A DNA stretch of 44,037 bases, from positions 1 through 44,037 of the forward strand of contig JAFQOX010000134.1 of NCBI GenBank assembly GCA_017412045.1. The letters run 5' to 3'. Both the position numbers and the translations under genes were made by a program. Positions 10,922 to 34,296 of the stretch are shown here, piece by piece. The notes under the pieces are model-generated. The model was not told the origin of the DNA. It saw only the letters and a list, made by a program, of their open reading frames with translations, and ran no database searches. The DNA comes from Clostridia bacterium (GTDB lineage Bacteria > Bacillota > Clostridia > Oscillospirales > CAG-272). Each line of letters begins with the position of its first letter. Within the stretch, counting starts at the first letter, position 1.

Positions 10922-12826
10922 TTGAAATTATTTGATAATATCTTAAATTTAGATTTGTTTTTAGAAAACGCACAGTTATTGAAAAACAAGAAATTCAAAG
11001 CGGGAGCAGATCGCATGACTGCGGACGAGGCATATTCTTGGCTACAGATCAACGGCGCACAGCTCTTGCGTCAATTGAAGCGCGGAACGTATGAGCCTGC
11101 GGCGGCATTGGCATATCCGATCGCAAAGCAGAGCGGCGGTTATCGGCGCGTTGCCAAGCTGACGGCAATGGATACGATCATCCAGCACGTCATGATGGAC
11201 GTCGTTTCTCCGTATCTCGAAAAGCAATTTTCGGATTCCAGCCACGCTTACCGAAAAAACAGGAGCGTGGAAACGGCGGTCAACCAATATTGCACGTACG
11301 GCACCGAGTATGCGGTGGCGGTCAAGATTGATCCCGTTTCCTGTTTTGACAACGTAAACCATGCGCTTTTGAACCAAATGCTGAACGAAATGATCGGCGA
11401 TGAGAAGCTCGTTGCATTGATGATGGCATACGTCGGAATGCCGATTTTGTCCGAAGGCGAGATGCTATATCCAGAGAAGGGGATTTTGCAGGGCGCGCCC
11501 ATCAGCAATTTGTTCTGCAATATTTATCTGCATAAATTGGACGTTTATCTTGAAGAACGTCAAATTCCGTTCGTTCGCTACGCCGACGACGTCGTTTTAT
11601 TCTTTGATACGTCGACGGAAGCAAAAAATAAGTGTGAGCGCACGCTTGCCTATATGGAAAAAGAGCTTTTTTTGAGGAAAAACGCAAAGAAATGTAAGAT
11701 CGATGCGCCCGTAAATCTGCGTTATCTCGGTTATCGCTTTGAAAAAAGTCAATACGGCTTGACTGCATTCGATGCTGATCAGAGCCCGTTCGACGTTTTG
11801 AAAAGCTGGCAGGATACGACCCCGCGTGATACGCATAGGACCGTGGACGTTCTGAAGGACGGTATCTTGCGGCAAAAGGACTATTCCTTGCTTTTTGACG
11901 GCGAAACGGAGGATTTTGATATTCCGATCGCTTCCACGGAGGTCATCAACATTTACGCTTCCGTGATTTTTGACAGCGGATTTTTGCAAAAGGCAATGGA
12001 TCGGGGCATTCTGATCAATCTTTATGACAAGCATTCTTCCCTGATCGGTCGATTTTATCCGAATGCGCCGCTGAAATCACCGGTGATGACCTTTGAGCAG
12101 TTAAATTTTTATTATAGTGATCGGGAGCGGCTTATGCTGGCGCAAACCTTCGTTCTGACCGCGCTCAAGCACATGAAATTGAACATTCGTTATTATCATA
12201 AGTTTTATCCCGACAAATATTTTGAAAAGACTGTCACTGCCATCAATGCGCTGGAAAAAGAGATCAAGGTATGTCCGTCCTATGAAAATCTGCTTCTTCT
12301 GGAAGCGCGGACGAGGGAGGCTTATTATTCCTGCTTTGACCGATTTATTCATAACAAGGATTTCATCTTTGAGAAACGGACGAAAAGACCGCCCCAAAAC
12401 GAGGTCAATGCGCTGATCAGCTTCGGCAATACCTTGCTGTATAATCTTTTCGCAACGGAAATTTATAAATCTCCCCTGGATATCCGCATCGGCTTTCTGC
12501 ACGCGACCAACAACAGGGAGGAATCTCTGAATCTGGATTTTGCCGAGATCTATAAGCCGTTGGTCGTTGACCGTGTCATTTTTGCCTTAATTAACCGAAA
12601 GGCACTGAATACGTCGCATTTTGAAAAGACGGAGAACGGCGGCGTTTATCTGACCGCCGAGGGCAAGCGGATCTTTCTCGATGCCTTTTATGAAAAGCTG
12701 GATACCTCGCTTCAGGTGAAGGGTGAGCATTTCACTTACCGTGAGCTGATCAAAAGGGAAGTGCAGCATCTGATCCGATATTTCAGAAACAGTGAAAAAT
12801 ATAAACCGTTTAAGCAGGTGAAATGA
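10922..12826 (+). CDS. cas1: Reverse transcriptase-Cas1 fusion
   Basis: The 634-residue protein joins an RT (about 20-280) to a Cas1 integrase (about 330-634). RT motifs are present in order: motif A KIDPVSCFD (Asp137), motif B GILQGAPISN (187-196), motif C YADD (220-223), and motif E RYLGYRF (267-273). The Cas1 part keeps an acidic residue at Glu461 (LLEAR), the KRPPQNEVNALISFG block, His527 (GFLHA) and DFAE (Glu542). RT-Cas1 with Cas2 inserts spacers and in known type III systems can capture RNA. There is no Cas6 domain; cas6 is separate. The start is TTG at 10922 after GAGGGGG. The gene is more AT-rich upstream than its neighbours. Confidence 0.95.
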   Translation: MKLFDNILNLDLFLENAQLLKNKKFKAGADRMTADEAYSWLQINGAQLLRQLKRGTYEPAAALAYPIAKQSGGYRRVAKLTAMDTIIQHVMMDVVSPYLEKQFSDSSHAYRKNRSVETAVNQYCTYGTEYAVAVKIDPVSCFDNVNHALLNQMLNEMIGDEKLVALMMAYVGMPILSEGEMLYPEKGILQGAPISNLFCNIYLHKLDVYLEERQIPFVRYADDVVLFFDTSTEAKNKCERTLAYMEKELFLRKNAKKCKIDAPVNLRYLGYRFEKSQYGLTAFDADQSPFDVLKSWQDTTPRDTHRTVDVLKDGILRQKDYSLLFDGETEDFDIPIASTEVINIYASVIFDSGFLQKAMDRGILINLYDKHSSLIGRFYPNAPLKSPVMTFEQLNFYYSDRERLMLAQTFVLTALKHMKLNIRYYHKFYPDKYFEKTVTAINALEKEIKVCPSYENLLLLEARTREAYYSCFDRFIHNKDFIFEKRTKRPPQNEVNALISFGNTLLYNLFATEIYKSPLDIRIGFLHATNNREESLNLDFAEIYKPLVVDRVIFALINRKALNTSHFEKTENGGVYLTAEGKRIFLDAFYEKLDTSLQVKGEHFTYRELIKREVQHLIRYFRNSEKYKPFKQVK

Positions 12827-13074
12827 TGTTTGTGATCTTAACTTACGATGCCGAAAGCGAACGGCTCTCCAAAATACGAAAAACGTGTAAAAAATATCTT
12901 TTACCCGTACAGCGCTCGGTCTTTGAGGGGCATCTCACGGAAAAAAGACTGCGCCTTCTGAAAGAGGATATTGCGAAAGCAATCAATCCGGAAAAGGATC
13001 ACGTTATCATTTACGTGATGTCCTACGGCGACCAATTTCAAAAGCTCGAGATCGGAAAAAAAGCAAGAAGATAG
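12826..13074 (+). CDS. cas2: CRISPR adaptation protein Cas2
   Basis: This protein of about 82 residues has the Cas2 ferredoxin-like start MFVILTYDAESERLSKIRKT with the conserved first-strand Asp (YDA), a QRSVFEG segment and the C-terminal strand HVIIYVMSYG. Cas2 forms the core dimer of the Cas1-Cas2 integrase. Its ATG overlaps the RT-Cas1 stop (an alternative ATG lies 3 bp upstream at 12823), so the two are translationally coupled and should be made in fixed proportion. Confidence 0.93.
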   Translation: MFVILTYDAESERLSKIRKTCKKYLLPVQRSVFEGHLTEKRLRLLKEDIAKAINPEKDHVIIYVMSYGDQFQKLEIGKKARR

Positions 13075-13127: not shown

Positions 13128-13266
13128 CATTTATTCTATGCAGAACAGATCCATATTTACGCGCAGATTATTTTTAATGAATAAAATCATATCAAGAAAA
13201 AATTCAAAATCGCGCAAAATGCGCAGATTCACGTATGATTTTTGGCGATTTTATGAAAAATAGCAC

Positions 13267-13295
13267 TTGACAAAACAAGAACTATGGTGTATAAT
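13267..13295 (+). promoter_or_regulatory. CRISPR leader promoter, main array
   Basis: TTGACA (13267-13272), 17 bp, TATAAT (13290-13295). Transcription would begin about 17 bp before the first repeat. The AT-rich leader from about 13130 shares AGATTCACGTATGA with the leader of the downstream array. Confidence 0.85.
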
Positions 13296-13318
13296 GGGAA
13301 GGAACACAAAATGTTGTT

Positions 13319-13770
13319 CCACCTTATCCCGTACGGGGATTGATACAAAAGAACCGTTTTCCTTAACCCATTCTTCGACAGTTGCTACCTTATCCCGTAC
13401 GGGGATTGATACGATTTTTCAAGATTATTTTGCAAGGATATAAATCCACTACCTTATCCCGTACGGGGATTGATACTCCTGTGCTCGTTCGATTCGGAAT
13501 AAATGTTACCTACCTTATCCCGTACGGGGATTGATACATGCAGGGAAATATGTCATTCCTTGCATTATTTCTACCTTATCCCGTACGGGGATTGATACGC
13601 GAGGTGACGGTGTCGTGAGTGGTGTCGGAGAGCCTACCTTATCCCGTACGGGGATTGATACGAGCCGAGGGTGATAGTGGTGCCGGGGGAGGTGTTGGCT
13701 ACCTTATCCCACTTTTGCTTTGCGAAAGTGTAACTGCCAACTTGTTGGCTGTGCGTTCGGGGATTGATTG
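13319..13770 (+). CRISPR. Main CRISPR array: six intact 28-nt repeats plus one interrupted repeat
   Basis: Repeats start at 13319, 13385, 13449, 13510, 13571 and 13634, with a seventh at 13699 split by a palindromic insert and resuming at 13755. Each begins CTACCTTATCC (CC in the first), has a central CCCGTACGGG palindrome and ends GGGGATTGATAC. The last eight bases, ATTGATAC, resemble the ATTGAAAC 5' handle of type III crRNAs, which sets the plus orientation along with the leader. The six spacers are 38, 36, 33, 33, 35 and 37 nt. The first repeat, next to the leader, has a one-base change, and the trailer-end repeat is degenerate (GATTGATTG). Confidence 0.97.
13711..13754. repeat. Palindromic element splitting the last CRISPR repeat
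   Basis: 44 bp separate the two halves of the seventh repeat. It contains two hairpins, one ending GCGAAAGTG and GCCAACTTGTTGGC. Nearly the same sequence follows the half repeat in the minus-strand relic at 10623-10669 (GCGAAAGTGTAACTGC, then AACTTGTTGGCTGTGCGTTC). A related hairpin GTCAGCTTGCTGAC sits at the leader-repeat junction near 24944. Confidence 0.75.
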
Positions 13771-14073: not shown

Positions 14074-14784
14074 ATGTACACGTTAAGACTTCGTTATATG
14101 CCCGAAAAAACGGTCGTGCTTCCCTTGGCGCACGCAGACGTTTTGCAGGGTGTTTTTTATTCTCTGCTTTCTCCCGAGGCGGCGCTGGCAAGCGAGATCC
14201 ACGACAAGCCGACGGAGGAGGGAAAGCAGTATAAATTTTTCTGCTTCTCCGATTTTCAGGGAAAGTATTCGATCCGCGGCGGAAATCTCTATTTCAAGGA
14301 TACCTTTACGTGGGAAATACGCTCCGCTGACGAGAGAATCCTCGCATCCGTCCATGCGCACGCGCATACCGTCAACGTCAGAGGCGTGAACTGTTCTCTG
14401 ATCGGTCTGGAGCGCGCGGAACGCATCTGTCTGACGGATTCCGCGGATATTACGATGATGACTCCTCTGTGCGTCTATACGACGCGCGCAAACGGCAACC
14501 GCCGTTTCTATTCGCCCGAGGAGGAGGAATTTTGTCGGAGCGCGGAGAAAAATCTGATTTCCAAATACGAGGCGTTTTACGGGCGGAAGCCCGGCGGCGC
14601 GGTCTCTCTGGAGCCGATCGCCGTCACGCCCGAGGATAAATGCGTGACCAAGTACAAGGGCTGGTACGTCACCGGCTATCGCGGCAAATACTGCCTTTCC
14701 GCTCCGCCCGACGTGATTGACTTTGCATACTATACGGGGCTGGGAGTGAAAAACTCCGCAGGCTTCGGACTATTTCAATTTTAA
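14074..14784 (+). CDS. cas6: crRNA-processing endoribonuclease Cas6
   Basis: The 236-residue protein begins with a RAMP strand (MYTLRLRYMPEK) followed by LPLAHADVLQGVFYSLL, the usual Cas6 N-terminal block with a candidate catalytic His20. It ends with the glycine-rich loop GLGVKNSAGFGLFQF (222-236) characteristic of Cas6. Cas6 cuts the repeat transcript to leave the 8-nt handle, here predicted as AUUGAUAC. AAGGA lies 7 bp before the ATG. It is first in the operon, 38 bp before the Cmr1-like gene, and also the nearest cas gene to the main array. Confidence 0.92.
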   Translation: MYTLRLRYMPEKTVVLPLAHADVLQGVFYSLLSPEAALASEIHDKPTEEGKQYKFFCFSDFQGKYSIRGGNLYFKDTFTWEIRSADERILASVHAHAHTVNVRGVNCSLIGLERAERICLTDSADITMMTPLCVYTTRANGNRRFYSPEEEEFCRSAEKNLISKYEAFYGRKPGGAVSLEPIAVTPEDKCVTKYKGWYVTGYRGKYCLSAPPDVIDFAYYTGLGVKNSAGFGLFQF

Positions 14785-14822: not shown

Positions 14823-16052
14823 ATGGTTTTCAAGAAGCCCTATACCTTAAAGCAACAAACTCCGATCATTCATTTTCAGTACGACCAGGCGGGTGCCACC
14901 TTGCGTGCAACGGAGGTCAAGCCTAAGCTGGATGCCTTTATTCTGAAAAAGGTCGGAGAAGAAACGGCGCGAAACAAGGGATGGTTTATCGGCGACACGA
15001 CGGCGCTTGATTATAAGATGCGGTTCTGCTCGCCGGGTGAAGAGCGTGTCAATCTTGATACGAGGGAATACGACATTTATTACGGCAATATGGGCGAGAA
15101 AACGATTTTCGTGGAGGGCATTTTTGCCGAGGGCAGAACGGTCACCATGGAGATCATCTGCTTCCGTAAGGAGCTCCGCGAAACGATCGATATGTATTTG
15201 GAAAATTTCTTCAACGTCACCAATTTCGGAAGAATGCAGAATAAAGGCTTCGGTTCCTTTATTCTTGAGCCCAAGGCCGGCGAGAGGATCGCAGTAAGAG
15301 ATCTCAAGATCAAAAAGCAATTGTGCGAGCAATACGGCGCTTCGCATTGCTACTCTTTCCCCGCGGGAAGCAAGTGCTTCAGACGTATTAAAACGGTCTA
15401 TTCGATCATCAAGTCCGGCTTGAATCACAGCGGATACAGACGCTCCCTTTTGTTCTACTATATGCACGATATGGCTATCGGCAACGAAAAGGCTTGGCTG
15501 AAACAAACCGGGATCGCTCCCTCCGAATTCAGATCGGAGAATAATCGCGCCAAATATAAGACCTACAGAGACAGCACGGGTGCGCACGAGTGTTTTTACG
15601 TCCGCGCGCTCCTTGGCGTCGGCGACAAGGCGGAATACCGGAGCGGCGACGGCAAGGAAACGATTTCCATGAACTGCACGGAAACGGACAAACAGAACAA
15701 GCCTCTGATCGAAAGATTGCCCTCGCCGATCTTTTTCAAGGTGATCGGCGATACCGTTTATTACGTGGGCGGCCGTATTCTGTCCTATACGCGCAGGAAA
15801 GACGATACTCCCACGGAGATCTGGGGACGTGAGTTTAAATTCGAAAATAAGGATACTGCAAAACCCCCCCTCTCCATAAAAGTGCCCAAAAAAGGCGCCC
15901 GGCCCTGCTTCAATGAAAATTTCATGGACGGTTTTCTGGAATACTGTTTTAAAGAATTGAATTCTACCAATCCCCGCGGCGGGCAGGAAACGCCTTTGAC
16001 CGAATTCCCCGATATGCAAGGCGTAACGATAAAACAGTATACCAAAAATTGA
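14823..16052 (+). CDS. Divergent Cmr1-like RAMP subunit
   Basis: The 409-residue protein starts KKPYTLKQQTPIIHFQYD and continues GATLRATEVKPKLD, a recognisable RAMP-type beginning (a strand followed by a structured-RNA-binding loop). A glycine-rich RMQNKGFGSF loop lies near residues 138-147. Position in a full cmr set and the absence of any other Cmr1 candidate suggest it caps the complex as Cmr1, the subunit next to the crRNA 3' end. It does not show the textbook Cmr1 repeated RAMP motifs clearly, and residues 250-409 are unrecognised, so the subunit name is inference. GGAGG precedes the ATG. Confidence 0.75.
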   Translation: MVFKKPYTLKQQTPIIHFQYDQAGATLRATEVKPKLDAFILKKVGEETARNKGWFIGDTTALDYKMRFCSPGEERVNLDTREYDIYYGNMGEKTIFVEGIFAEGRTVTMEIICFRKELRETIDMYLENFFNVTNFGRMQNKGFGSFILEPKAGERIAVRDLKIKKQLCEQYGASHCYSFPAGSKCFRRIKTVYSIIKSGLNHSGYRRSLLFYYMHDMAIGNEKAWLKQTGIAPSEFRSENNRAKYKTYRDSTGAHECFYVRALLGVGDKAEYRSGDGKETISMNCTETDKQNKPLIERLPSPIFFKVIGDTVYYVGGRILSYTRRKDDTPTEIWGREFKFENKDTAKPPLSIKVPKKGARPCFNENFMDGFLEYCFKELNSTNPRGGQETPLTEFPDMQGVTIKQYTKN

Positions 16053-16066
16053 TAGGAGGACAACCA

Positions 16067-17680
16067 ATGAGCCAGAACAACCATTACATCGCCATCACGA
16101 TCGGTCCGATCGGGGATATGATGGGGCTTGTCAGAAAGCCCACCGCTCTTTGGGGCGCGAGCTACATATTTTCTTATATTTCCAAACGCCTGTGCGAGCT
16201 GATCGTGGAAAAGAAGGTGGCGGCGGCAAGCAGCGATATCATTACGCCCTTCTTCGTTGCGGAGGAGGACGCGAAAAACGAAAATGAAAAAAGTCTGATG
16301 GACAGACGGGACGGCGTAGGCCTGTTCCACGACCATATCATCGTGAGAGCCGATCTCTCGAAGAATCGGGAGGTCATGAAGGAGATCAAGCGCGAGGTCA
16401 TTGAAAACGTCGCCTCCATTCTTGCTCCCGAAAACTGCGATACGCCCGAAAAACAAAAGGCGTACGCGGATCAGATCGAAAAATATATCTTGATCGCGGT
16501 GTGCGGATTTGAGAAAGACGGCACCGGCAACGCGATCATGTACTGCGGCAAGCAGCTCGATTCCCTTGAGCTTCCCAAGCAATTTGCCGCCGCAGAGGAA
16601 AAGCACCCCATTCTTTCCCGTTTGCAGAGCAGAAGAGATAACGATGCGAGCGCCACGATCAAAGCGATCGCCGAGAGATTCGGCGTGGATATGAAGCAGT
16701 GGCAGCTCACGTTGGAAAAAAATAGCGGCCGCGACGTGCGGGATCTTCCCGATATCGCCGCTGCGAGCCGCGCGCCCGGCTTCAAGAAGAACAAATATTA
16801 TTGCATTCTCCGTGCCGACGGCGACAATATGAGCAAGATCATCTCCGGCTTGCCGGACGATGAAAAATGCCGCGAATTTTCGAGAATTTGCCTTGATTAT
16901 TGCGCAAAGGTTGCCGCGGCTGTCAAAACCTACGGCGGTGCCACGATCTTTGCGGGAGGCGACGACCTCTTTGCGATCGTGCCTTGTCAGGGGGTGGATC
17001 CCGAAACCGGAAAAATGATCACCGTATTGGAGTTCACGCAGTCCATCTGCAAAATCTTCAGAGCAAGCTTCCGAAAAGAGATCGAGGCGATTGAAAAAGC
17101 CAATCTCAACCAACCCGAGAATAAGCGCGTTCCCGTTCCCTCTCTTTCCTTCGGCGCTTATATCTGCTATCGCAAATTCCCGCTTTACGAGGCGATCGAG
17201 CGCTCCGGCGCTTTGCTTTTCGGCGTTGCGAAAAACACCGCGCATAAAAATTGCGTTGCCGTCCATCTCCAGAAGCACGCGGGACAGAGCGAGGAGCTGG
17301 TGATCTCCAACACCGTTCTTGCGGATGAATCGAACCGCTTCTTTGAAAGATTCAATTTCCTGATCAGCAATTCAAAGGATCAGGACGAGATCCTTTTGTC
17401 CGCATCCAATAAGATCCTGCTCTTCAATCATTTGCTGGCGGCTGCACCCTCCGAAAACGTTAAAAACGTGTTCGAAAACGTTTTTGACGATGATTTCCAT
17501 ACCGACAAGCGCTCCGATTTTCTCCACGTGTTCTTGCCCGATATGTACGAGATCTGCCGCAAACCCGATCAGATCGTGCTTTACGAGCGTGACCGGGCAC
17601 TCAAGACCGCAGATCCGGCAAAAACACTTGCGCAGTTGATCCGCTTTATGAAATTCTTTGTTGAAAAGGGGGATATGTGA
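16067..17680 (+). CDS. cas10: Cas10 (Cmr2), HD-less, with intact cyclase GGDD
   Basis: I chose the ATG at 16067 (537 residues) because AGGAGG lies 7-12 bp before it; an in-frame ATG at 16049 overlaps the previous gene and has no ribosome site. The protein opens directly with the first palm domain (ITIGPIGDMM, then RKPTALWGASYI), so the N-terminal HD nuclease found in many Cas10 proteins is absent. The second palm has RADGDNMSKI (249-258) and GGDD at 297-300, the metal-binding catalytic motif for second-messenger synthesis. On target RNA binding it should make cyclic oligoadenylate or a related nucleotide signal. It is the largest subunit of the type III-B complex. Confidence 0.95.
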   Translation: MSQNNHYIAITIGPIGDMMGLVRKPTALWGASYIFSYISKRLCELIVEKKVAAASSDIITPFFVAEEDAKNENEKSLMDRRDGVGLFHDHIIVRADLSKNREVMKEIKREVIENVASILAPENCDTPEKQKAYADQIEKYILIAVCGFEKDGTGNAIMYCGKQLDSLELPKQFAAAEEKHPILSRLQSRRDNDASATIKAIAERFGVDMKQWQLTLEKNSGRDVRDLPDIAAASRAPGFKKNKYYCILRADGDNMSKIISGLPDDEKCREFSRICLDYCAKVAAAVKTYGGATIFAGGDDLFAIVPCQGVDPETGKMITVLEFTQSICKIFRASFRKEIEAIEKANLNQPENKRVPVPSLSFGAYICYRKFPLYEAIERSGALLFGVAKNTAHKNCVAVHLQKHAGQSEELVISNTVLADESNRFFERFNFLISNSKDQDEILLSASNKILLFNHLLAAAPSENVKNVFENVFDDDFHTDKRSDFLHVFLPDMYEICRKPDQIVLYERDRALKTADPAKTLAQLIRFMKFFVEKGDM

Positions 17681-17682
17681 CG

Positions 17683-18771
17683 ATGTCTGCATACAGAGTA
17701 ACCTTCACACCTTCCGGACCTTACTTTTTCGGTAATGAAAAAACCTTTATTTACCCGGGACAAAAGGTAAAAAACGATTTCGGTAAGCTTTACTATATCA
17801 AGGGAGAAAGAATGCCCATGCAGACGACGCTTCTCGGCGCGTTGCGATACGTTCTGCTTCCGCAAAAGGGACTCGGAAAAAACCTTCTTTCCGCGGATTC
17901 CGTCGCGGCGATCGGAAGCTCCAGCTTTGATATGGACAGCGAGCAGCAACAGGATTTCGGACGGATCAAAAGCATTTCTCCTATATTTCTCCGTAAAAAC
18001 GAGGAATATTTTATTCCCACGCCCTTTGATCACAACGAAAATACCAAAAAATCGGCGGACGGTCGGATCTATTATACGCCGATGTCCGATTACGGGGAGG
18101 TATATACGCTCGATGGCAAAAAGCTGTATCTGCGCGATTACGATGCCAAGCTCGGCATTGCCGATTCCTTCACGTCGCTTTCCGACGGACATCTGGAAAC
18201 CTCGCTCTTTGCTCCCGACGTCAGAGTGGGCATCAACCGCGACGACCGTTCGGACGACGGATTTTTCAAGAAGGAATACGTTTCTCTGGCGAGAGGCTTT
18301 GCGTTTGCCGTCTTCGCGGATATCGAGGGAGAGTATCTTTCGGGCAAGGTCTTCACCGTTTTGCTCGGACAGGGAAAGGTCCCGTTTTCCGTTCTGTTTG
18401 AAAAGGCGGATAAGAACTGCGCGACAGATCTCGGGAAAAAGATTGCCGATATTCTGAAAAAGCCCTCCGTTCCGTACGACCGCGTGTACTGTCAGAGCGA
18501 TATGCTGACGGACGGCTGTGATCTCTACGGCGCAATGCGCTTTGCCATTACCAAAACGCGCGATCACAGAAGCTTCAAAACGGTCGTTTCCGAGAATGTG
18601 AAGGGAACGGAGATCGAAAAGGGAAGCACGCTTCACAGGCTGGTTGCGGCGGGAAGCATTTTCTTTCCGAAAAGCGGCGCGGATGAGGACTGGATGAGAA
18701 AAACGAATAAGCAGAAAAATGCGGCGACCGTAGGCTTCAATCAAATGATACTGATCAAAAAAGGAGAATAA
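17683..18771 (+). CDS. cmr3: Cmr3, type III-B RAMP subunit
   Basis: The 362-residue product begins SAYRVTFTPSGPYFFGNEKT, the typical Cmr3 first strand and FFG loop, and contains PMQTTLLGALRYVLL, the Cmr3 helix motif. Cmr3 pairs with Cas10 and holds the crRNA 5' handle. The ATG at 17683 has AGGGGG about 10 bp upstream; a GTG at 17677 also fits but is too close. The start lies 2 bp after the cas10 stop. Confidence 0.9.
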   Translation: MSAYRVTFTPSGPYFFGNEKTFIYPGQKVKNDFGKLYYIKGERMPMQTTLLGALRYVLLPQKGLGKNLLSADSVAAIGSSSFDMDSEQQQDFGRIKSISPIFLRKNEEYFIPTPFDHNENTKKSADGRIYYTPMSDYGEVYTLDGKKLYLRDYDAKLGIADSFTSLSDGHLETSLFAPDVRVGINRDDRSDDGFFKKEYVSLARGFAFAVFADIEGEYLSGKVFTVLLGQGKVPFSVLFEKADKNCATDLGKKIADILKKPSVPYDRVYCQSDMLTDGCDLYGAMRFAITKTRDHRSFKTVVSENVKGTEIEKGSTLHRLVAAGSIFFPKSGADEDWMRKTNKQKNAATVGFNQMILIKKGE

Positions 18772-18777
18772 AGAACG

Positions 18778-19572
18778 ATGAACGTCAAGGTTTATTATAT
18801 AGATTGTCTGACAAATCTGCACGTGGGCTCGGGTGATGCCAATTTCAATATCGTGGACAAGGAGGTCGAAAAGGACCCCGTCACCGGTTATCCGATCGTT
18901 CACGCTTCCGGCATCAAGGGCGCTCTGCGCGAGGCATACAGAAAAAACCATTCTGAAAAAGAAACGGAAAAGATTTTCGGAAAGCCCGCTACGGAAAACG
19001 AATCCGATACGGGCGGTTCCTACAAATTCTTTGATGCGCGCTTCCTTTACCGCCCCGTTCGCGCACAGGGAAGCGTTCCCTCCGTGAACGTGACGACCGT
19101 GGAAGCGATCCGCGAGTTTGCGCAGCTGACGAAAGCCTTCGGTATCGATATCGGCTTGGACACGGGCGTGCTGGATAAAATCACCTTCCCCGCCGGCAAT
19201 CAGGAGATCAATTTTCTGACCTCCCATGCGGGCATTCGCGTGGAGGGAGAGACCTGCGGCACGCTGAACGATGCGGCAGTCCGCGCGCTGAAGCCGTTCC
19301 TCGGCAATCATTTTGCCGTTGCCGCAAGCCTGGACGGCTATGACCTGCCCGTCATCGCCAGAAACTGCCTGCAGGAGAAGAAAAGAAACCTTTGGTACGA
19401 GGAATTCGTTCCTCACGGAAGCAGATTTTATATGCTTGCGATCATTCCCGAAAATGCGGCACAGGACGAGATCGATGCCGTGATTCCCAAAATCGCGCAG
19501 ATCGGCGGCAACTGCTCCGTCGGCTACGGCTATTGTGAATTCGGCTGTCAGTTCGGCAGACAGGAGGCTTGA
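18778..19572 (+). CDS. cmr4: Cmr4, backbone RNase subunit
   Basis: The 264-residue protein has the RAMP pattern NLHVGSGDANFNIVDKEV followed by ...TGYPIVHASGIKGALRE. Asp27 (IVDKE) sits where the target-RNA-cleaving Asp of Cmr4 lies. A C-terminal glycine-rich segment IGGNCSVGYGYCEFG fits the fold. Cmr4 forms the helical backbone along the crRNA and cuts target RNA every 6 nt. GGAG lies upstream of the ATG. It follows cmr3 by 6 bp. Confidence 0.93.
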   Translation: MNVKVYYIDCLTNLHVGSGDANFNIVDKEVEKDPVTGYPIVHASGIKGALREAYRKNHSEKETEKIFGKPATENESDTGGSYKFFDARFLYRPVRAQGSVPSVNVTTVEAIREFAQLTKAFGIDIGLDTGVLDKITFPAGNQEINFLTSHAGIRVEGETCGTLNDAAVRALKPFLGNHFAVAASLDGYDLPVIARNCLQEKKRNLWYEEFVPHGSRFYMLAIIPENAAQDEIDAVIPKIAQIGGNCSVGYGYCEFGCQFGRQEA

Positions 19573-19573
19573 G

Positions 19574-19969
19574 ATGAACAAGCGACAGGTAGAAAAGCTT
19601 CTTCCCAAGGCAATTGAAACGCTGAATCAGTCGGATATCCTGAAGACCGATGAACAAGGCGATTACATTGAAAAGGGCTTCCGCAGTCAGATCTCCTCGT
19701 TCGGAGCGGCTGTTACGATGGGAAGCTTCCGCGCGGCAGTTGCTTTTTTCGGTAATAACGGCGAAAGCGACGTAGATCGCGCAGAGCTGATCCGCGCGAT
19801 GTATTATATGACGAAGGGCGGCTGGCTTTCCGCGCAGGATATCGTAAAGGAGATCGCCTCGATCAGAAACCGCGCGCAGCTTGCGCAGATGAAGGAGGAT
19901 TTTCTCAATGCCTCCGTTGCGCTGAAGCTTGCCCTGAACTCGTTCAGACTGAAAGAAAAGACCGAATAA
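19574..19969 (+). CDS. cmr5: Cmr5, small helical subunit
   Basis: The 131-residue, mostly helical protein fits Cmr5 (KGFRSQISSFGAAVTMGSFR, then a long helical C-terminal region). AGGAGG at 19562-19567 selects the ATG at 19574, one base after the cmr4 stop; an earlier in-frame ATG at 19535 overlaps cmr4. Cmr5 lines the belly of the complex next to Cmr4 and stabilises target RNA binding. Confidence 0.9.
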   Translation: MNKRQVEKLLPKAIETLNQSDILKTDEQGDYIEKGFRSQISSFGAAVTMGSFRAAVAFFGNNGESDVDRAELIRAMYYMTKGGWLSAQDIVKEIASIRNRAQLAQMKEDFLNASVALKLALNSFRLKEKTE

Positions 19970-19986: not shown

Positions 19987-21024
19987 ATGGAAAATTTAAA
20001 CCTTCTTTTCAATAAAACCTATTATTCCGATATGGCGGATACCGAGACCTTCGACAAAGCCGTAGACGAAAGAAACAAAGCGATTTTCGCGACGGTCTTT
20101 TCGGCGGATGACTACGCGCCTTGTAAGTTGAAGGACGTTCCCGGCTTTGCATCCTTTGACCTGAAAACGACGTATCCCGGCCTTCTGGTCGGAACGGGCT
20201 ATGCGCACGGACTCGGATTCGAAAAGGTATCCTCGGATATCAACTGCGGCTTTTCCTTTGATTACGTGACGGGACAGCCGTACGTTCCGGGAAGCTCGGT
20301 GAAGGGTATTCTTCGCAGTGCGTTCCGCAGAACGGAGCTTCGTGAGTATATCGCGGATTTCTGCGGTATCCCGAAGGACCGCTCCGATCTGATTGAAGCG
20401 TTCGAGGAGCATATTTTCGGAACAAGCGCGGAGGATGTCGGCGAGGGAGAGGACGTCTTTCTCGATGCCGTGATCAAAAGAGGCGATGCCGATTCGCGTA
20501 TATTGGGCGATGACTATATCACGCCGCACCGCACTCCCATAGAAAATCCTACGCCCATACGCATCGTCAAGGTTTTGTCTGACGTTGTTTTTGAGTTCCG
20601 TTTCGTACTCAAGGGCTTTGAGGCGGAGGGCATCTCGGTCAGCGCGGCAAAGAAGCGCGCGCTGTTCCTGGAGCTTGCGCAGATCCTGGGTATCGGCGCG
20701 AAAACCAACGTTGGCTACGGCGCCATGAGCGCGTGCTTGCCGGCGCAGACGGAACCCGAGGCACCGCCCGTTGTGAGGAGATCGGCGCCTCCTCCCGCTC
20801 AGGAAGTAAATCTGCCGACGCAGGCGGATAAGGGAACGGAGTATACGGCGGTCGTTGTCGGCGATAAGGATAAGAAAAATTATAAGCTCAAGGTTAACCT
20901 TGGCAAAGCGACCTTCGAGGGAATGATCAAAAAGAATCTTTTCAGCGCCGATCCCTCCGGAACGGAGATCCGGGTCGTATTGGATGCGGTTGAAGGAAGA
21001 AACCGTAAATTTATTTTGGCATAA
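19987..21024 (+). CDS. cmr6: Cmr6 with an extra C-terminal domain
   Basis: Residues 1-250 are a normal Cmr6: VGTGYAHGLGFE (68-79), YVPGSSVKGILRSAFRR (99-115) and the glycine-rich GIGAKTNVGYGAM (235-247). Cmr6 caps the crRNA 3' side of the backbone. A Pro/Ala-rich linker (about 252-278) then leads to an unusual domain at about 283-345, containing VGDKDKKNYKLKV and ATFEGMIKK. The same pattern opens the downstream CorA-like effector. The extension is much longer than in ordinary Cmr6 and its role is unknown. GGAG precedes the ATG. Confidence 0.92.
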   Translation: MENLNLLFNKTYYSDMADTETFDKAVDERNKAIFATVFSADDYAPCKLKDVPGFASFDLKTTYPGLLVGTGYAHGLGFEKVSSDINCGFSFDYVTGQPYVPGSSVKGILRSAFRRTELREYIADFCGIPKDRSDLIEAFEEHIFGTSAEDVGEGEDVFLDAVIKRGDADSRILGDDYITPHRTPIENPTPIRIVKVLSDVVFEFRFVLKGFEAEGISVSAAKKRALFLELAQILGIGAKTNVGYGAMSACLPAQTEPEAPPVVRRSAPPPAQEVNLPTQADKGTEYTAVVVGDKDKKNYKLKVNLGKATFEGMIKKNLFSADPSGTEIRVVLDAVEGRNRKFILA

Positions 21025-21194
21025 CGATAGGAATCGCGCTATTTTTAGAGATTGATGGAAGCGGAAGGCAGATCGCCTCCCGCTTACGTAGTCAGAAAGG
21101 GATAAGTTTGAAATAACATCCGTCATAGTCCGAAAGAAATGCATGACGAAAAAAACTACTGCAAAGTAGTCAAAAAAACAATATTCATACAAGA

Positions 21195-21482
21195 TTAAGA
21201 AGTCGCAGGGGTAACAAGATACCCTTGACGTTGAAGAATAAAGATAGCCTCATCTACCGAAACAGTGCGATGTGCGGGTAGATCGTTCGACCGAGTATAA
21301 AGGTCTGCATTGTAAGGTTCATTCTTTTTGAGAATGTTGTAGATTGCAGTCAGTAACATTCTCGCAATCGCGATGAGGGCTTTCTTGTGACCTCTGCGCT
21401 TTTTAATAGATAAATATCTATTGCGGATTTCGGGATTTTTCTTAGATTTAATTGCCGCCAAAGCACATTGAACATATCCCTT
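21195..21482 (-). pseudogene. C-terminal remnant of an IS110-family transposase
   Basis: Minus-strand codons read [36 protein letters not shown] and [18 protein letters not shown], the C-terminal part of IS110/IS116/IS902 transposases, with a stop at 21195. Only about 90 of roughly 400 residues remain and no start or catalytic domain is seen. It lies in the 497-bp gap between cmr6 and the CorA gene, antisense to both, in an otherwise tight operon. Confidence 0.8.
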
Positions 21483-21521
21483 TTGTGCCTTGTAGCGCAG
21501 CAGAAAGGAATGGTCATAACT

Positions 21522-23420
21522 ATGACAGAAGAAAATAAAAATGCACAGTCTTTAACCGAACCCACCAAGGCTTTGCTGACAAAAAACAATATAGGGGAGT
21601 TCTTTGTTGCGGATGTTACAGGAGATAAAGACGCTGACAGCTACAAGCTGAAGGTCAAGTATAAGAACGCGGACTCCAATGAAGAAAAATCGACCTTTGA
21701 GGGCTTTATTAAAAAAACTGCTCTTGCCGAAGACACGCCGAAGGAAAACATCTGTGTCCGGTTGATTGCGGTCGAAGAAGATCAATACGAATTTGTATTG
21801 AACGATACGGTCATCAGCTATCATACTTTTATGTTCCCGTTTCTTTACGCGACCGACAAGATGACCCGAAAGGAATTCGGCTCCCGCTGTCACCCGGGAT
21901 GGCGCCTTGATTTGTGGGAGCCCGAACGGATGAATGACCAGCTTGATTATAATCAGTATCATTATTTTAATGAAACGGCGCATAACGCGATTTATACGAC
22001 GAAAAGCGCAGGAAACGGCAAAAAAAGACAATCGGACGAAAATTTCGAGAATGCGGCAGTGATCAATCTGCGCTTTGATCTGTCCTCGCTGATCACGGAA
22101 GATCGGGCGGACGATCACGATAAAAAGAAAGCCGATTCCTTCGAATACGTCATCCGTAAATATAACGACAGAAAACCGGGCGAGAAATTGACGGTCAAAT
22201 TCGAATACGCTCTCGATATCCACGCGATCCGCATGAAGCTTTACAATACGGGCGTGGGCATCCTGATCTTCGAGCTTGAGAACAGTAAATATCCCACGGA
22301 AAAGAACGTGATCCGGATCAACGACTTCGGCAGACGCATCTACGCGCCCTATTACGCGTATTACAACGAAAGTATGCATTGCAGCATCTGCGCGAATGAA
22401 ATCTTTTTCAACGTCAACGGCAAGCATATCGGAGATGCCGATCTGCTCCCTGAGCGTCTCAGAGCGTCTGCGGAGGAGACCGTTCTCGCAGAGCCGATCC
22501 GCATACTTCTCTCCAACGGCGATTACACCATCACCACGAAGAATACGTACGGAAAGAACGATACCCGCATTGAGACGGCGCTCGACGACAGAATGTTCGT
22601 CGCCTGCTATTACAAAAACGGCGATTTCGTGGATGCCATGCGCGAATGGGACGGCGAGAATTACCGTTATCTCACCCACGCAAAGGAAAACGTCCCCTTT
22701 GACAACAGGGAAAACGCGAACGCCGCACATCGGCTCTATACCATGATGTACGCGGACGGCGACGGTCTCTGCTGTCACAGCAGAAGCATGATGCAGAAGC
22801 TGCTTTCCGACGATCACATCTATACCCGCTGGCTGGAATACGGCTGGAACTCCGGAAACGAGAAGTGCTTCTACGGAAGCATTACGGGCTTCAGCGAATA
22901 TACCATGATCACCGTAGCGAAGGATCCCCCCGATCACCTGATCGCGGCATTCCTCACGCAATACGTCGAGATGGCGACGCTGGTGCTGGCGCAGAGAACG
23001 TCCCTGCTCTCCTTTGAATACATGATCAGCGAATACGCGCATGGAAGAAGCTACAACGTCGAGGATATTCACAAAAGATACATTCTTTTCCAATCGCAGA
23101 TCCTTTTGAATGAGGTCACTTCTCAGCAGCAGGGTCTTGAACTCTACGATCTTCTGAAGCAAAATCTGATGATCGAAAAGGAACAAAGCGAGATCAAGGA
23201 ACAGATCGAAGGGCTATTCGAGCACAGAAATTACGTACATGACAAAAAGGAGAACAGAATCCTTTTTTGGCTCTCCCTGCTGAGCATTGCGGAAGCAACC
23301 GATATTGTGACGAATCTTTTTATCCCCGAAAACGGCGCGTGGATTCCTTCCGTCGTGAAGGGCGGAATCATGCTTGCTCTTGCCGCATTTATAGGTATTT
23401 CCTATAAACACAGAAAATAA
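21522..23420 (+). CDS. CorA-like membrane effector of type III CRISPR
   Basis: I start at ATG 21522, after AGAAAGGA; earlier in-frame Met codons fall inside the transposase remnant. The 632-residue protein has an N-terminal domain (about 24-94) homologous to the end of Cmr6, a large soluble region, then a CorA-type long helix (about 520-579) and two membrane helices (about 580-600 and 610-628) before a short basic tail. The CorA GMN pore motif is not present. CorA effectors known from Bacteroides type III-B systems are triggered by SAM-AMP and disrupt the membrane; whether this one uses the same ligand is inference. It overlaps no gene and precedes card1 by 21 bp. Confidence 0.8.
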
Positions 23421-23441: not shown

Positions 23442-24674
23442 ATGACTTTTATTGAATTTTTTGACAAATCTCCGATTGAGAATATCATCAGCGCCTTCGC
23501 GATCCGTCCCGACAAGATCGTATACGTCGGCGAATCGAAGATGATGAAAAAAAGCGTTCCCTTTTACGAGAAATTTTTAAAGAGCAAGGGCATCTCCATT
23601 CCTATGGAAATCTGCCCCGTCAACAAAAACAATTTATGGGACGTTGTGAAAAAGCTTTCCGCCGTCGTCGAGGCGGAGGACGAATGCGCCTTTGACCTGA
23701 CGGGCGGCGAGGATCTGCTTCTGGTCGCGGTGGGCATCGTTTTTCAGACGTACCGTGAAACCAAAAAGCTCCATATGCATCGTTTCAATATGAGAAACGG
23801 TACGCTGATCGACTGCGATAACGACGGCGAGGTTCCCTTTACCGTTTCACAGCAGCTTTCCGTGGAGGATTGGGTCGCTCTGCACGGCGGCGTCGTCGCG
23901 CATAGAGCCACGGAGGGCAAAAACGTCATCGCCATGCACAAGGAAGACATCTGTCGGATCTGGGACGTTTGCAAGAGCAAGCCCGGCAAATGGAACTATC
24001 AGATCGGCATTCTGAACGAATTCCAGAAATACGATGCCGACACCTCCGATCCCCTGCACGTTTGCATCAAGCTTTCCTACGTCTCCGCATATATTAAAAA
24101 TATGCGCGATAAATTGGACGTGCTTGACGATCTCGTCAACGCGCTGCGGGGCACGGGACTGGTCACGGACGTCAGATGGACGAGAGAGGAGATATCCTTC
24201 GTTTACCGTAACGCCTTCGTGAAAAATTGCGTCGGCAAGGCGGGCGAGATCCTGGAGACCAAGATTTTGCAGCTCGCCTACGACATGAGGGATAAGAACA
24301 AGTCCTATTGCAGCGATGCGGACAGAGGCGTTTTTATCGACTGGGACGGTGTTCTCCACGAGTCAGAGGAAAAGGTTCACGACACTGAAAACGAGATCGA
24401 CGTGATGCTAATGCACGATCTGACCCCCGTTTTCATTTCCTGCAAAAACGGCGCCTTTGACGACGAAGAGCTCTATAAGCTCTTTACCGTATCCTCCCGC
24501 TTCGGCGGCGCTTACGCAAAGAGAATCCTCGTCTGCTCCGATTTCAGCGAGCGCGGCGAGAAATATCCGCACCTGGCACAGCGCGCAAGAGATATGGGCA
24601 TCACCATCATCCCCGGCGTGCAGGACCTCTCCGACGAGGAGATCAAAGCGAAGCTGAAGGACGCGATTTCCTGA
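23442..24674 (+). CDS. Card1/Can2-like CARF nuclease (DUF1887)
   Basis: The 410-residue protein has an N-terminal CARF domain (about 1-140) with DLTGGEDLLLV at 85-95 in the place of the family's TGGT(K) ligand motif. A winged-helix-like middle leads to a PD-(D/E)XK nuclease (about 255-400) with KAGEILE (Glu269), NEIDVML (Glu317, Asp320 region) and FISCKNG (Lys335). Card1 and Can2 are activated by cyclic tetra-adenylate and cut single-stranded RNA and DNA or supercoiled DNA. So this effector probably reads cyclic oligoadenylate made by Cas10. It follows the CorA gene by 21 bp and is likely on the same transcript. Confidence 0.88.
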   Translation: MTFIEFFDKSPIENIISAFAIRPDKIVYVGESKMMKKSVPFYEKFLKSKGISIPMEICPVNKNNLWDVVKKLSAVVEAEDECAFDLTGGEDLLLVAVGIVFQTYRETKKLHMHRFNMRNGTLIDCDNDGEVPFTVSQQLSVEDWVALHGGVVAHRATEGKNVIAMHKEDICRIWDVCKSKPGKWNYQIGILNEFQKYDADTSDPLHVCIKLSYVSAYIKNMRDKLDVLDDLVNALRGTGLVTDVRWTREEISFVYRNAFVKNCVGKAGEILETKILQLAYDMRDKNKSYCSDADRGVFIDWDGVLHESEEKVHDTENEIDVMLMHDLTPVFISCKNGAFDDEELYKLFTVSSRFGGAYAKRILVCSDFSERGEKYPHLAQRARDMGITIIPGVQDLSDEEIKAKLKDAIS

Positions 24675-24890
24675 GCGGATAAAGGGCGTTCATCTTATTT
24701 TAAAATGGCGAAGATCGGATCTTTTGCGGTTCGTTCTTCGTCTTTTTGTGTTGAATCCATACGAAACCATTCGTATTCTTCGCGAATATATAGTTTTTGT
24801 GAAGGATTTTATAGGGATATACTTGTTTTAATTTGATATATATTACGTAGATTCACGTATGAAATTGCAGTATTTTTGAAAAATTAGGGG

Positions 24891-24919
24891 TTGACAAAAC
24901 AAGAGGTATGGTGTATAAT
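24891..24919 (+). promoter_or_regulatory. Leader promoter of the second CRISPR locus
   Basis: TTGACA (24891-24896), 17 bp, TATAAT (24914-24919), same as the main leader. The AT-rich leader starts near 24780 and includes GATTCACGTATGA. Between the promoter and the repeat lies the hairpin GTCAGCTTGCTGAC, absent from the main leader. Confidence 0.8.
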
Positions 24920-24963
24920 AAGAAGGAACACAAAATGTGTAACTGTCAGCTTGCTGACAGTGG

Positions 24964-25043
24964 CTACCTTATCCCGTACGGGGATTGATACAGTATATGT
25001 TCTTTCGTAACAATATTCAAGTTGAGCTACCTTATCCCGTACG
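24964..25043 (+). CRISPR. Degenerate second array: one repeat, one spacer, one truncated repeat
   Basis: A perfect 28-nt repeat occupies 24964-24991. A 35-nt spacer follows to 25026. The second repeat is identical for its first 17 bases (CTACCTTATCCCGTACG, 25027-25043) and then breaks into an unrelated palindromic sequence. Only one crRNA could be made, and its 3' repeat lacks the Cas6 site. Confidence 0.9.
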
Positions 25044-25195: not shown

Positions 25196-25717
25196 ATGAA
25201 AAAATTTTTTGTTGATGCGGAAAGCGACGGCTTATACGGCGCTTTCCTGAGCATCGCCGCGATGGTGACGGATGATGCAGGCGCGGAGCTTGACCGCTTT
25301 TATGCATCGGTCAATATTTCCTGCGAGCAGATCCATTCCGAATGGGTCAAGGAGAACGTATATCCCGACCTGAAAAACGCCGAGGCGTTTTTTGATACCG
25401 AGTCGGAATTGTTGGACGCCTTCTGGTCCTTCTGGATGAAGCACAGAAAGGATTCCGTTTGTATTGCCTACGTTCAATACCCTGTGGAATGCCGTCTTTT
25501 TACACGTTGCGTCATGAAAAATGAGGCGGAAAGAGCCTTTCTCGGTCCTTTCCCGCTCTACGATCTCAGCACGCTTCTTGCGGCGAGGGGCTTTTCCTTC
25601 AATCCGGATATGCAAGTCCTTTCCGGACTGAATCTTCGGGCGCACGATGCCATGAACGACGTCAGAATGATGGCGGCGGTCTGGAATCGGCTGATCGACG
25701 GTCAAGAAAAGCAATGA
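25196..25717 (+). CDS. DEDDh-type (DnaQ-like) exonuclease
   Basis: The 173-residue protein begins KKFFVDAESDG with Asp7 and Glu9 of the ExoI motif. The C-terminal AHDAMNDVRMM provides His150 and Asp155 of ExoIII, the DEDDh class. In the middle, AYVQYPVECRLF stands where ExoII normally has an Asp, with Glu98 as the nearest acid, so this motif is atypical. The family degrades short RNA or DNA from the 3' end. It sits just beyond the second array, oriented with the cas genes. Possible roles are prespacer trimming or degradation of signal nucleotides, both inference. A weak promoter (TTGCGA, 17 bp, TATATT) overlaps the preceding hairpin. Confidence 0.8.
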   Translation: MKKFFVDAESDGLYGAFLSIAAMVTDDAGAELDRFYASVNISCEQIHSEWVKENVYPDLKNAEAFFDTESELLDAFWSFWMKHRKDSVCIAYVQYPVECRLFTRCVMKNEAERAFLGPFPLYDLSTLLAARGFSFNPDMQVLSGLNLRAHDAMNDVRMMAAVWNRLIDGQEKQ

Positions 25718-34246: not shown

Positions 34247-34296
34247 GTCCATTTCTCCTGTCTTTATACTGATAAAATATCATCAGGAAAATTTTG

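What the first reader, a model, noticed from the sequence alone, without database searches (positions are those of the whole stretch)
20833..21803. Cmr6 C-terminal domain is homologous to the N-terminal domain of the CorA-like effector
Cmr6 residues about 283-345 and the CorA-like protein residues about 25-94 align end to end: VGDKDKKNYKLKV against [22 protein letters not shown] against STFEGFIKK, then a shared I.V.L.AVE....F.L ending. I count about 29 identities over about 63 aligned positions by eye, with one 7-residue insertion in CorA. In Cmr6 the domain is tethered by a Pro-rich linker. Diffusible messengers are the known link between type III complexes and effectors; a matched domain on both suggests direct docking, shared partner binding or membrane tethering of the complex. 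I know of no described type III system with this feature.
Basis: partly seen in the sequence, partly recalled or inferred. Interest (0 to 1): 0.88.

Follow-up and report, generated by a model that had tools for sequence, protein, structure and literature searches.

The report
CRISPR sensor and effector share domain
In one bacterial genus, a subunit of an RNA-sensing CRISPR complex and the membrane protein it is thought to switch on carry related copies of one small domain, which looks like a common RNA-binding fold and may help bring sensor and effector together.

Summary
Cmr6 residues 282-345 and residues 23-95 of the CorA-like effector are homologous: 29 of 64 aligned residues identical, pairwise BLASTP E = 7e-10, 0 of 5000 shuffles as good. 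A same-genus genome (G005) also has the domain on Cmr6, but its second copy is a stand-alone 87-aa gene just before a CorA-like gene that lacks it: three contexts in all.

By sequence it is rare: 2 of 395 family genomes searched, four copies, all in these operons. By fold it is probably ordinary: an OB/S1-like barrel such as other Cmr6 proteins carry as a tail. The locus looks like a SAM-AMP (CorA-1) type III-B system.

Best reading: the two barrels bind a common ligand, probably RNA, and so keep the membrane effector near the complex. This is untested; independent roles or direct docking remain possible. A new variant of a known system, hypothesis-generating.

The parts
20830..21024 (+). Cmr6 C-terminal OB/S1-like domain (residues 282-345) and stop codon
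   Evidence: BLASTP with the CorA-like N terminus E=7e-10; profile match to other Cmr6 barrel-like tails
20728..20829 (+). Pro/Ala-rich linker of Cmr6 (residues 248-281)
   Evidence: sequence, composition
19987..21024 (+). cmr6
   Evidence: NCBIfam cmr6 9.2e-28; PADLOC Cmr6 3.5e-30
21588..21806 (+). N-terminal domain of the CorA-like effector, homologous to the Cmr6 tail
21522..23420 (+). CorA-like membrane effector gene (ATG 21522; the ORF is open from TTG 21468)
   Evidence: PADLOC CorA-like 1.1e-63, residues 94-603; no Pfam match above cut-off
21060..21084 (+). RNA hairpin after cmr6, resembling the two hairpins of G005
   Evidence: strand folding z -3.27; G005 hairpins
21195..21461 (-). 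88-aa ORF between cmr6 and corA, looks like the C-terminal end of an IS110-type transposase (label recalled, not from a call)
   Evidence: no Pfam family above cut-off; single copy in the genome as held
10922..12826 (+). reverse transcriptase-Cas1 fusion
   Evidence: Pfam RVT_1 2.9e-27 and Cas_Cas1 2.5e-72
12823..13074 (+). cas2
   Evidence: Pfam CRISPR_Cas2 2e-19
13311..13661 (+). CRISPR array, 6 repeat copies
   Evidence: the repeat finder family D5
14074..14784 (+). cas6
   Evidence: NCBIfam cas6 3.5e-31
14823..16052 (+). cmr1
   Evidence: PADLOC Cmr1 2.6e-72
16067..17680 (+). cas10/cmr2 with GGDD at residue 297; acidic residues aligned with B. fragilis D70 and E151
17677..18771 (+). cmr3
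   Evidence: Pfam Cas_Cmr3 1.8e-12
18778..19572 (+). cmr4
   Evidence: NCBIfam Cmr4 1.9e-34
19571..19969 (+). cmr5
   Evidence: PADLOC Cmr5 7.7e-33
23442..24674 (+). Card1/Can2-like CARF-PD-(D/E)xK effector
   Evidence: PADLOC CARF4-CARF_PDDEXK 2.7e-31; Pfam Card1_endonuc 5.4e-6, just above its cut-off; no PDB sequence match better than E 0.03
24956..25043 (+). two further CRISPR repeat copies
   Evidence: the repeat finder D5 and D6
25196..25717 (+). DEDDh-type nuclease, candidate SAM-AMP phosphodiesterase
   Evidence: PADLOC DEDDh 5.2e-5; no Pfam match

Best explanation
Shown: within a CorA-type III-B operon, one small domain exists as homologous copies on the complex subunit Cmr6 (C-terminal, on a Pro-rich linker) and on the N terminus of the CorA-like membrane effector; in a sister species the second copy is a separate small gene immediately upstream of corA. 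Moderately supported: the domain is an OB/S1-like beta-barrel, of the same kind as tails on a number of other Cmr6 proteins. Inferred: the Cmr6 tail binds RNA (target RNA or crRNA near the end of the complex where Cmr6 sits; position recalled), and a duplicated copy given to the effector lets the membrane protein, directly or through the stand-alone adaptor, bind the same ligand or partner. The effector would then sit near an engaged complex and receive SAM-AMP locally. SAM-AMP remains the trigger; the paired domains add proximity, not a replacement signal.
For: Homology. Four copies in two species, all inside cmr operons: 2 of 395 family genomes; none of the other 46 Cmr6 tails of 40 aa or more (of 49; the rest are window, L011, L022) is shared with a second protein of its locus. 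Barrel assignment: profile A3 against ten other Cmr6 tails scores 28.8 (probability 77%); 0 of 300 column shuffles and 0 of 98 native decoys (maximum 15.95) reach it. Those tails match the S1 profile at 29.3 (decoy maximum 14.81). The HMM of the ten tails, built without the window, ranks the window Cmr6 as best non-member of 7150 ORFs (E = 0.064; ORF count). One Cmr6 tail (L029) is a Pfam S1 domain, 7.4e-13. The most conserved block between the two copies is VGDKD...YKLKV..TFEGxIKK (17/26 identical against 12/38 elsewhere, Fisher p = 0.011, block limits chosen after seeing the alignment); it covers the beta2-beta3 face that binds RNA in S1 domains (recalled). SAM-AMP setting: both acidic Cas10 residues kept, DEDDh nuclease.
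Against: No binding data of any kind and no structure. Direct comparison of the domain with S1 is not significant (score 11.8; 39 of 300 shuffles, and 15 of 98 decoys, reach it); the S1 link goes through ten tails that I picked by eye from 49. With the domain's own HMM those tails do not come up (only L054, at E 9; best non-member is part of a Cmr3-like ORF of L019, E 0.14), and an S1 HMM does not find the window; the tail HMM finds the CorA copy only at E 7.2. The CorA copy is net acidic (10 K+R against 17 D+E), odd for an RNA binder. The G005 Cmr6 tail lacks part of the conserved block. Only two of the seven genomes of the genus that were searched have it, and most of the CorA ORFs examined do without it.
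Confidence: 0.38

Rival explanations
1. Independent roles. The Cmr6 tail does what other Cmr6 tails do on the complex, and the copy on CorA is a reused module with a separate job on the channel (gating, solubility, restraint of toxicity), at the end where other CorA effectors carry a fused domain.
For: Cmr6 tails are highly variable (49 of 86 Cmr6 ORFs have a tail of 40 aa or more, of several kinds by eye), so a tail is a swappable part. In 6 of 64 CorA ORFs the CorA match starts beyond residue 260, and all six hold a DHH motif as in NrN. B. fragilis CorA showed some toxicity when expressed without NrN (PMC10600005, passages read). In G005 the domain is detached from CorA.
Against: The shared copy is specifically the one on the cognate Cmr6 and is found nowhere else in either genome as held (87.7% and 93% complete); in both species a second copy is kept at the same place in the operon, with pS above pN in all six pairs.
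Confidence: 0.27
2. Direct docking. The two homologous barrels bind each other (as paralogous domains often dimerise) and tie the Cmr complex physically to the CorA-like channel or, in G005, to a small adaptor.
For: Matched domains on both partners; opposite net charge of the window pair, +5 on Cmr6 and -7 on CorA. Pro-rich linker on Cmr6. Direct effector docking exists in type III-E (PMC11089037, start of abstract in listing); NucC fused to Cas10 beside a stand-alone nucC was suggested to let NucC assemble on the complex (PMC11229360, section 17 read).
Against: In G005 both copies are net basic (+3 and +3), so the charge complement is not conserved; the best conserved block is the presumed ligand face, not an obvious dimer patch; no multimer prediction possible.
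Confidence: 0.18
3. Operon control. The small barrel protein is an RNA binder that regulates translation of its own operon through the hairpins in front of the stand-alone gene and corA; the fusion in the window is a by-product.
For: In G005 both the stand-alone gene and corA follow a near-identical 64-nt leader (59/64 identical) with a hairpin (z -2.63 and -5.24); a similar hairpin follows cmr6 in the window (z -3.27).
Against: In the window the hairpin is separated from corA by the 88-aa ORF region; intergenic hairpins are common; no evidence that the domain binds them.
Confidence: 0.07
4. Recent, nearly neutral duplication without lasting function, kept only because the lineage is young.
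For: Known from only two species.
Against: Copies have diverged to 35-55% protein identity with dN below dS in all six pairs (dS is above 1, so near saturation), and all four remain open frames.
Confidence: 0.1

Closest known systems
CorA-1 type III-B (SAM-AMP) systems such as Bacteroides fragilis Cmr-CorA-NrN (PMC10600005, passages read)
   Same: Cmr1-6, Cas10 with D70/E151-type acidic residues and GGDD, CorA-like effector, phosphodiesterase gene (here DEDDh); RT-Cas1 is named in that paper's figure legend for this cluster too
   Different: the closest solved Cmr6 (PDB 9lq5_I, 314 aa) ends 3 residues after the RAMP match, without a tail; the calls do not name its organism, and I infer B. fragilis because residues 70, 151, 328 and 329 of its Cas10 chain fit that paper's numbering. 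No other ORF of the 89 loci matches the domain except in L011/L022. A CARF nuclease is also present here
S1 (OB-fold) domain fusions in type III variants with Csx10 (PMC3150331, passage read)
   Same: an OB/S1 barrel fused to type III Cas proteins, in that paper in two distinct fusions
   Different: the passage concerns Csx10-type systems and does not name an effector fusion or CorA
Cmr6 proteins with other OB-type domains: L029 (S1 tail) and PDB 9arw_H, deposited as 'CSD domain-containing protein Cmr6'
   Same: an OB-type domain attached to the Cmr6 RAMP core
   Different: no copy of the L029 tail found on another protein of its own locus; in 9arw the RAMP match starts at residue 176, so its extra domain is probably N-terminal
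NucC-Cas10 fusion next to stand-alone nucC, Virgibacillus pantothenticus (PMC11229360, section 17 read)
   Same: one domain both on a complex subunit and on a separate neighbouring protein
   Different: there the shared domain is the effector enzyme itself; here it is a small accessory barrel
Craspase, type III-E Cas7-11 with TPR-CHAT (PMC11089037, start of abstract in listing)
   Same: a type III effector physically held by the complex
   Different: no shared domain and no second messenger (recalled); physical contact is reported there and only conjectured here
NrN-CorA fusions (PMC10600005, passages read)
   Same: extra domain at the N terminus of CorA
   Different: NrN is a SAM-AMP-degrading DHH enzyme; in the six fusions seen here it precedes a CorA match that starts beyond residue 260, whereas the domain here is about 65-73 residues

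Membership tests
CorA-1 type III-B / SAM-AMP system | Cmr1-6 with Cas10 carrying GGDD | tested here: met
CorA-1 type III-B / SAM-AMP system | acidic residues equivalent to B. fragilis Cas10 D70 and E151 | tested here: met
   HMMER alignment to PDB 9lq5_B, positions checked, role; chain taken as B. fragilis from its numbering
CorA-1 type III-B / SAM-AMP system | CorA-family effector in the locus | tested here: met
   PADLOC CorA-like 1.1e-63
CorA-1 type III-B / SAM-AMP system | two C-terminal membrane helices in the effector | tested here: inconclusive
   simple hydropathy passed 1.4 at the C terminus for one segment only, residues 605-629
CorA-1 type III-B / SAM-AMP system | gene for a SAM-AMP degrading enzyme (NrN, DEDD or lyase) | tested here: met
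   DEDDh family match 5.2e-5 at 25196-25717; activity not testable
CorA-1 type III-B / SAM-AMP system | makes SAM-AMP and the CorA protein binds it | not testable with these tools
   biochemistry needed
S1/OB-fold domain | Pfam S1-type model above its cut-off | tested here: not met
   only RNase_II_C_S1 at 15.6 bits against a cut-off of 26.6, 1 of 4 members
S1/OB-fold domain | direct profile match to S1 domains better than chance | tested here: not met
   score 11.8; 39 of 300 column shuffles reach it; an S1 HMM does not find the window
OB-like tails of Cmr6 | profile match to other Cmr6 barrel-like tails better than chance | tested here: met
   28.8 against shuffle maximum 17.1 and decoy maximum 15.95. 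Tails chosen by eye; when 46 tails were scored singly, the top 3 and 5 of the top 6 were among them, but with low scores (best 17.73, probability 3.7%), and L075 and L092 are near-identical
OB-like tails of Cmr6 | five-stranded OB barrel structure | not testable with these tools
   structure prediction switched off
Physically coupled effector (Craspase-like in mode of action) | effector binds the complex | not testable with these tools
   needs co-purification

The most novel reading that the evidence does not exclude
A type III-B complex and its membrane channel effector carry a matched pair of barrel domains that bring them together (through a common RNA, a common partner, or each other), so that SAM-AMP is made beside the channel it opens: a localised, scaffolded second-messenger circuit, in a sister species built with a separate adaptor protein.
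Probability: 0.3. Interest if true: 0.78.

Novelty: new variant of a known kind. Interest (0 to 1): 0.52.

Why it matters
Type III effectors are generally treated as free receivers of a diffusing messenger (recalled), yet CorA shows toxicity when unchecked and its link to the rest of the system is an open question in PMC10600005 (passages read). A matched domain on sensor and effector gives a concrete, deletable handle for testing whether some type III systems confine their signal by proximity. The survey also suggests that Cmr6 tails (barrel-like, zinc-ribbon-like, helical or absent, by eye) are a swappable part worth studying.

Tried and rejected
Generic widespread domain: rejected at sequence level. 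The profile found the two known genomes among 395 of the family (drawn from a larger group) and, among 398 of the phylum (likewise), the window's genome plus two weak hits (E 2.7e-4 and 0.0095). The first lies in a 748-aa ORF that looks like a RecD-type helicase (label recalled); I recognised no cas gene by eye in the 6.6 and 9.0 kb fetched around them. The Cmr6 tail alone had no tblastn match in phages or plasmids; viral contigs gave no relative of the domain or of Cmr6.

Wider occurrence of matched tail and effector: the 49 Cmr6 tails of 40 aa or more (47 distinct) were compared with all 7150 ORFs of 89 loci. Same-locus sharing with a second protein was seen only in the window and in L011/L022, which hold the same Cmr6 sequence; the one other match, L029 tail to a Tex-like ORF of L025 (label recalled), is across loci (counts).

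Gene conversion or concerted evolution of the two copies: protein columns lean to within-genome pairing (4 informative columns against 0 for orthology and 1 for the third split), but nucleotide columns do not (9, 8, 9); the likelihood test gave no output. Left open.

Direct S1 homology: not significant on its own. Pfam, NCBIfam, PADLOC and PDB sequence searches do not name the domain.

Not in print, as far as searched: paper searches for Cmr6 with cold shock domain (0 papers), with OB-fold and type III (0 papers), with C-terminal domain or S1 domain (10 of 422 listed), Cmr6/CorA/SAM-AMP terms (15 of 22 listed), type III CRISPR with CorA and OB fold and with S1 domain showed no title or abstract start describing this pairing. 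Only open-licence PMC papers were searched, and I read passages of four of them.

Full report
WHAT WAS CHECKED. The window is a type III-B cas operon: RT-Cas1, Cas2, a CRISPR array, Cas6, Cmr1, Cas10, Cmr3-6, a CorA-like protein, a Card1-like CARF nuclease, more repeats and a DEDDh-type nuclease. None of the family models listed for Cmr6 (345 aa) goes beyond residue 248; the rest is a Pro/Ala-rich linker and a domain at 282-345. The CorA-like protein matches PADLOC CorA models from residue 94 or 95 on (631-aa form); the stretch before it, 23-95 counted from ATG 21522, is the partner. The two align with 29 of 64 identities, BLASTP E = 7e-10, and a Smith-Waterman score of 107 against a maximum of 57 in 5000 shuffles; the next of 305 window ORFs scores 39.

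THREE CONTEXTS. A genome of the same genus (G005, locus L011; L022, labelled Oscillospiraceae bacterium SIG642, has the same length, coordinates and Cmr6 sequence) has cmr4-cmr5-cmr6, then an 87-aa ORF that is the domain alone, then a CorA-like gene without it, then the DEDDh-type gene. Its Cmr6 also carries the tail. Pairwise identities: window Cmr6 tail to window CorA copy 29/64; window Cmr6 tail to stand-alone 32/64; G005 Cmr6 tail to stand-alone 34/62; the two Cmr6 tails 24/61, although the Cmr6 cores are 179/247 identical; CorA copy to stand-alone 29/65; CorA copy to G005 Cmr6 tail 22/62. dN is below dS in all six pairs, with dS above 1. In G005 the stand-alone gene and corA share a 64-nt leader (59/64 identical) running from a hairpin through the ribosome site into the first codons, so the two genes are related by a local duplication. 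Whether the fusion or the separate gene came first is not settled.

HOW COMMON. With the domain profile, 2 of 395 genomes of the family match, those of the window and G005; the other five same-genus genomes among them do not. In 398 genomes of the phylum only the window's own matches, plus two weak hits in stretches where I saw no cas gene. Phages, plasmids and viral contigs gave none. Cmr6 itself occurs in 4 of 395 family genomes: the two with the domain, one with a zinc-ribbon-like tail by eye (G1027) and one without a long tail (G175). I scanned 89 loci (window, L008-L011, L018-L101), of which 86 hold a Cmr6 ORF, 84 of them distinct. 49 of the 86 Cmr6 ORFs have a tail of at least 40 aa: barrel-like, zinc-ribbon-like, helical or undefined, by eye. 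Only the window and L011/L022 share their tail with another protein of the locus. Among 64 CorA ORFs in 61 loci (62 distinct; ten are fragments under 400 aa and may lack their N terminus) only the window's has this domain. In six others the CorA match starts beyond residue 260 and a DHH motif is present, in line with the NrN-CorA fusions reported in PMC10600005 (passages read).

WHAT THE DOMAIN IS. The strand pattern and the motif FEGxIKK recall an S1/OB barrel (recalled). Pfam gives only RNase_II_C_S1 at E 0.015 for one of four members, below cut-off. A direct profile comparison with eight S1 domains of the same genome, a Tex S1 and the L029 S1 tail is not significant (score 11.8, 39 of 300 shuffles reach it). 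Against ten other Cmr6 tails that I judged barrel-like by eye, the score is 28.8 (0 of 300 shuffles, maximum 17.1; 0 of 98 native decoys, maximum 15.95), and those tails match S1 at 29.3. The HMM of these tails, built without window sequence, ranks the window Cmr6 first among non-members (E 0.064; the CorA copy only E 7.2). In the other direction the domain's own HMM does not bring up the tails (only L054, at E 9), and its best non-member is part of a Cmr3-like ORF of L019 at E 0.14. Scoring 46 tails singly put L056, L075 and L092 on top and five of the ten in the first six, at low scores (best 17.73). L029, a Ruminococcus Cmr6, has a full Pfam S1 tail (7.4e-13). So the OB/S1 reading is moderately supported, through intermediates.

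HOW IT MOST LIKELY WORKS. Cas10 keeps the acidic residues aligned with D70 and E151 of B. fragilis Cas10, which PMC10600005 ties to SAM-AMP synthesis (passages read; alignment to PDB 9lq5_B, numbering), and a DEDDh nuclease is present, so the CorA-like protein is probably a SAM-AMP-gated effector. Its hydropathy is clear for one C-terminal membrane segment only. The block best conserved between the two copies (17/26 against 12/38 elsewhere, limits set after seeing the alignment) covers the part where S1 domains bind RNA (recalled). I therefore favour a shared ligand, probably RNA, that keeps effector and complex close; SAM-AMP is still the trigger. Against this, the CorA copy is net acidic and the G005 Cmr6 tail lacks part of the block. 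Independent use of a swappable module is the nearest rival, direct docking less likely, and operon autoregulation through the hairpins a long shot. Nothing measured here separates them.

PLACE AMONG KNOWN SYSTEMS. It fits a CorA-1 type III-B system by the gene content and Cas10 residues that could be tested, with an added accessory domain. S1 fusions in type III variants were noted in PMC3150331 (passage read). A domain on both a complex subunit and a neighbour is known for NucC-Cas10 (PMC11229360, section 17 read). Physical effector contact is known for Cas7-11 and TPR-CHAT (PMC11089037, start of abstract in listing). The combination, one accessory domain on both Cmr6 and the CorA-like effector, was not seen in the search listings made. 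I call it a new variant of a known kind.

Noticed in passing
23442-24674 and 21522-23420: A CARF-PD-(D/E)xK (Card1-like) effector sits beside a CorA effector and a DEDDh nuclease in one operon whose Cas10 keeps the SAM-AMP residues; PMC11229360 calls it hard to envisage one Cas10 making both SAM-AMP and cA6 (passage read). The 6.5-kb G005 contig has no Card1-like gene between corA and the DEDDh-type gene.
   Followed up: partly
L008 9991-11622 (G000:C3): The same genome has a second CorA-like gene (PADLOC 1e-68) with no cas gene recognised by eye in the 19 kb fetched (about 10 kb before, 7 kb after); in G175 the CorA-like gene and the Cmr6 gene are also on different contigs.
   Followed up: partly
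21060-21084; L011 2172-2195 and 2525-2548: Intergenic hairpins (two with a GAAA loop) stand after cmr6 and before the stand-alone gene and corA; the G005 pair lies in a duplicated 64-nt leader.
   Followed up: partly
21195-21461 (-): An 88-aa ORF like the end of an IS110-type transposase (label recalled) lies between cmr6 and corA; it is the only copy in the genome as held, so a decayed insertion may have split the operon.
   Followed up: partly
L024, L027, L030, L031, L032, L036 (Cmr6 tails): Several Clostridia Cmr6 proteins end in a zinc-ribbon-like tail with paired cysteines, and several Campylobacterota ones in a shared helical-looking tail (by eye); Pfam gave no zinc-ribbon match above cut-off for L036.
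   Followed up: partly
27722-30154 (-) and 30185-34252 (-): Two neighbouring large proteins with zinc-ribbon-like starts, a TIR-like segment and leucine-rich-type repeats (by eye, recalled), 76% identical in DNA over 300 nt, next to the CRISPR locus.
   Followed up: no
1-525: Tandem repeat with a 105-nt period at the window start (family D1).
   Followed up: no
13222-13314 and 24846-24938: An 80% identical 93-nt stretch precedes both CRISPR repeat clusters (D9), as expected of a shared array leader.
   Followed up: no
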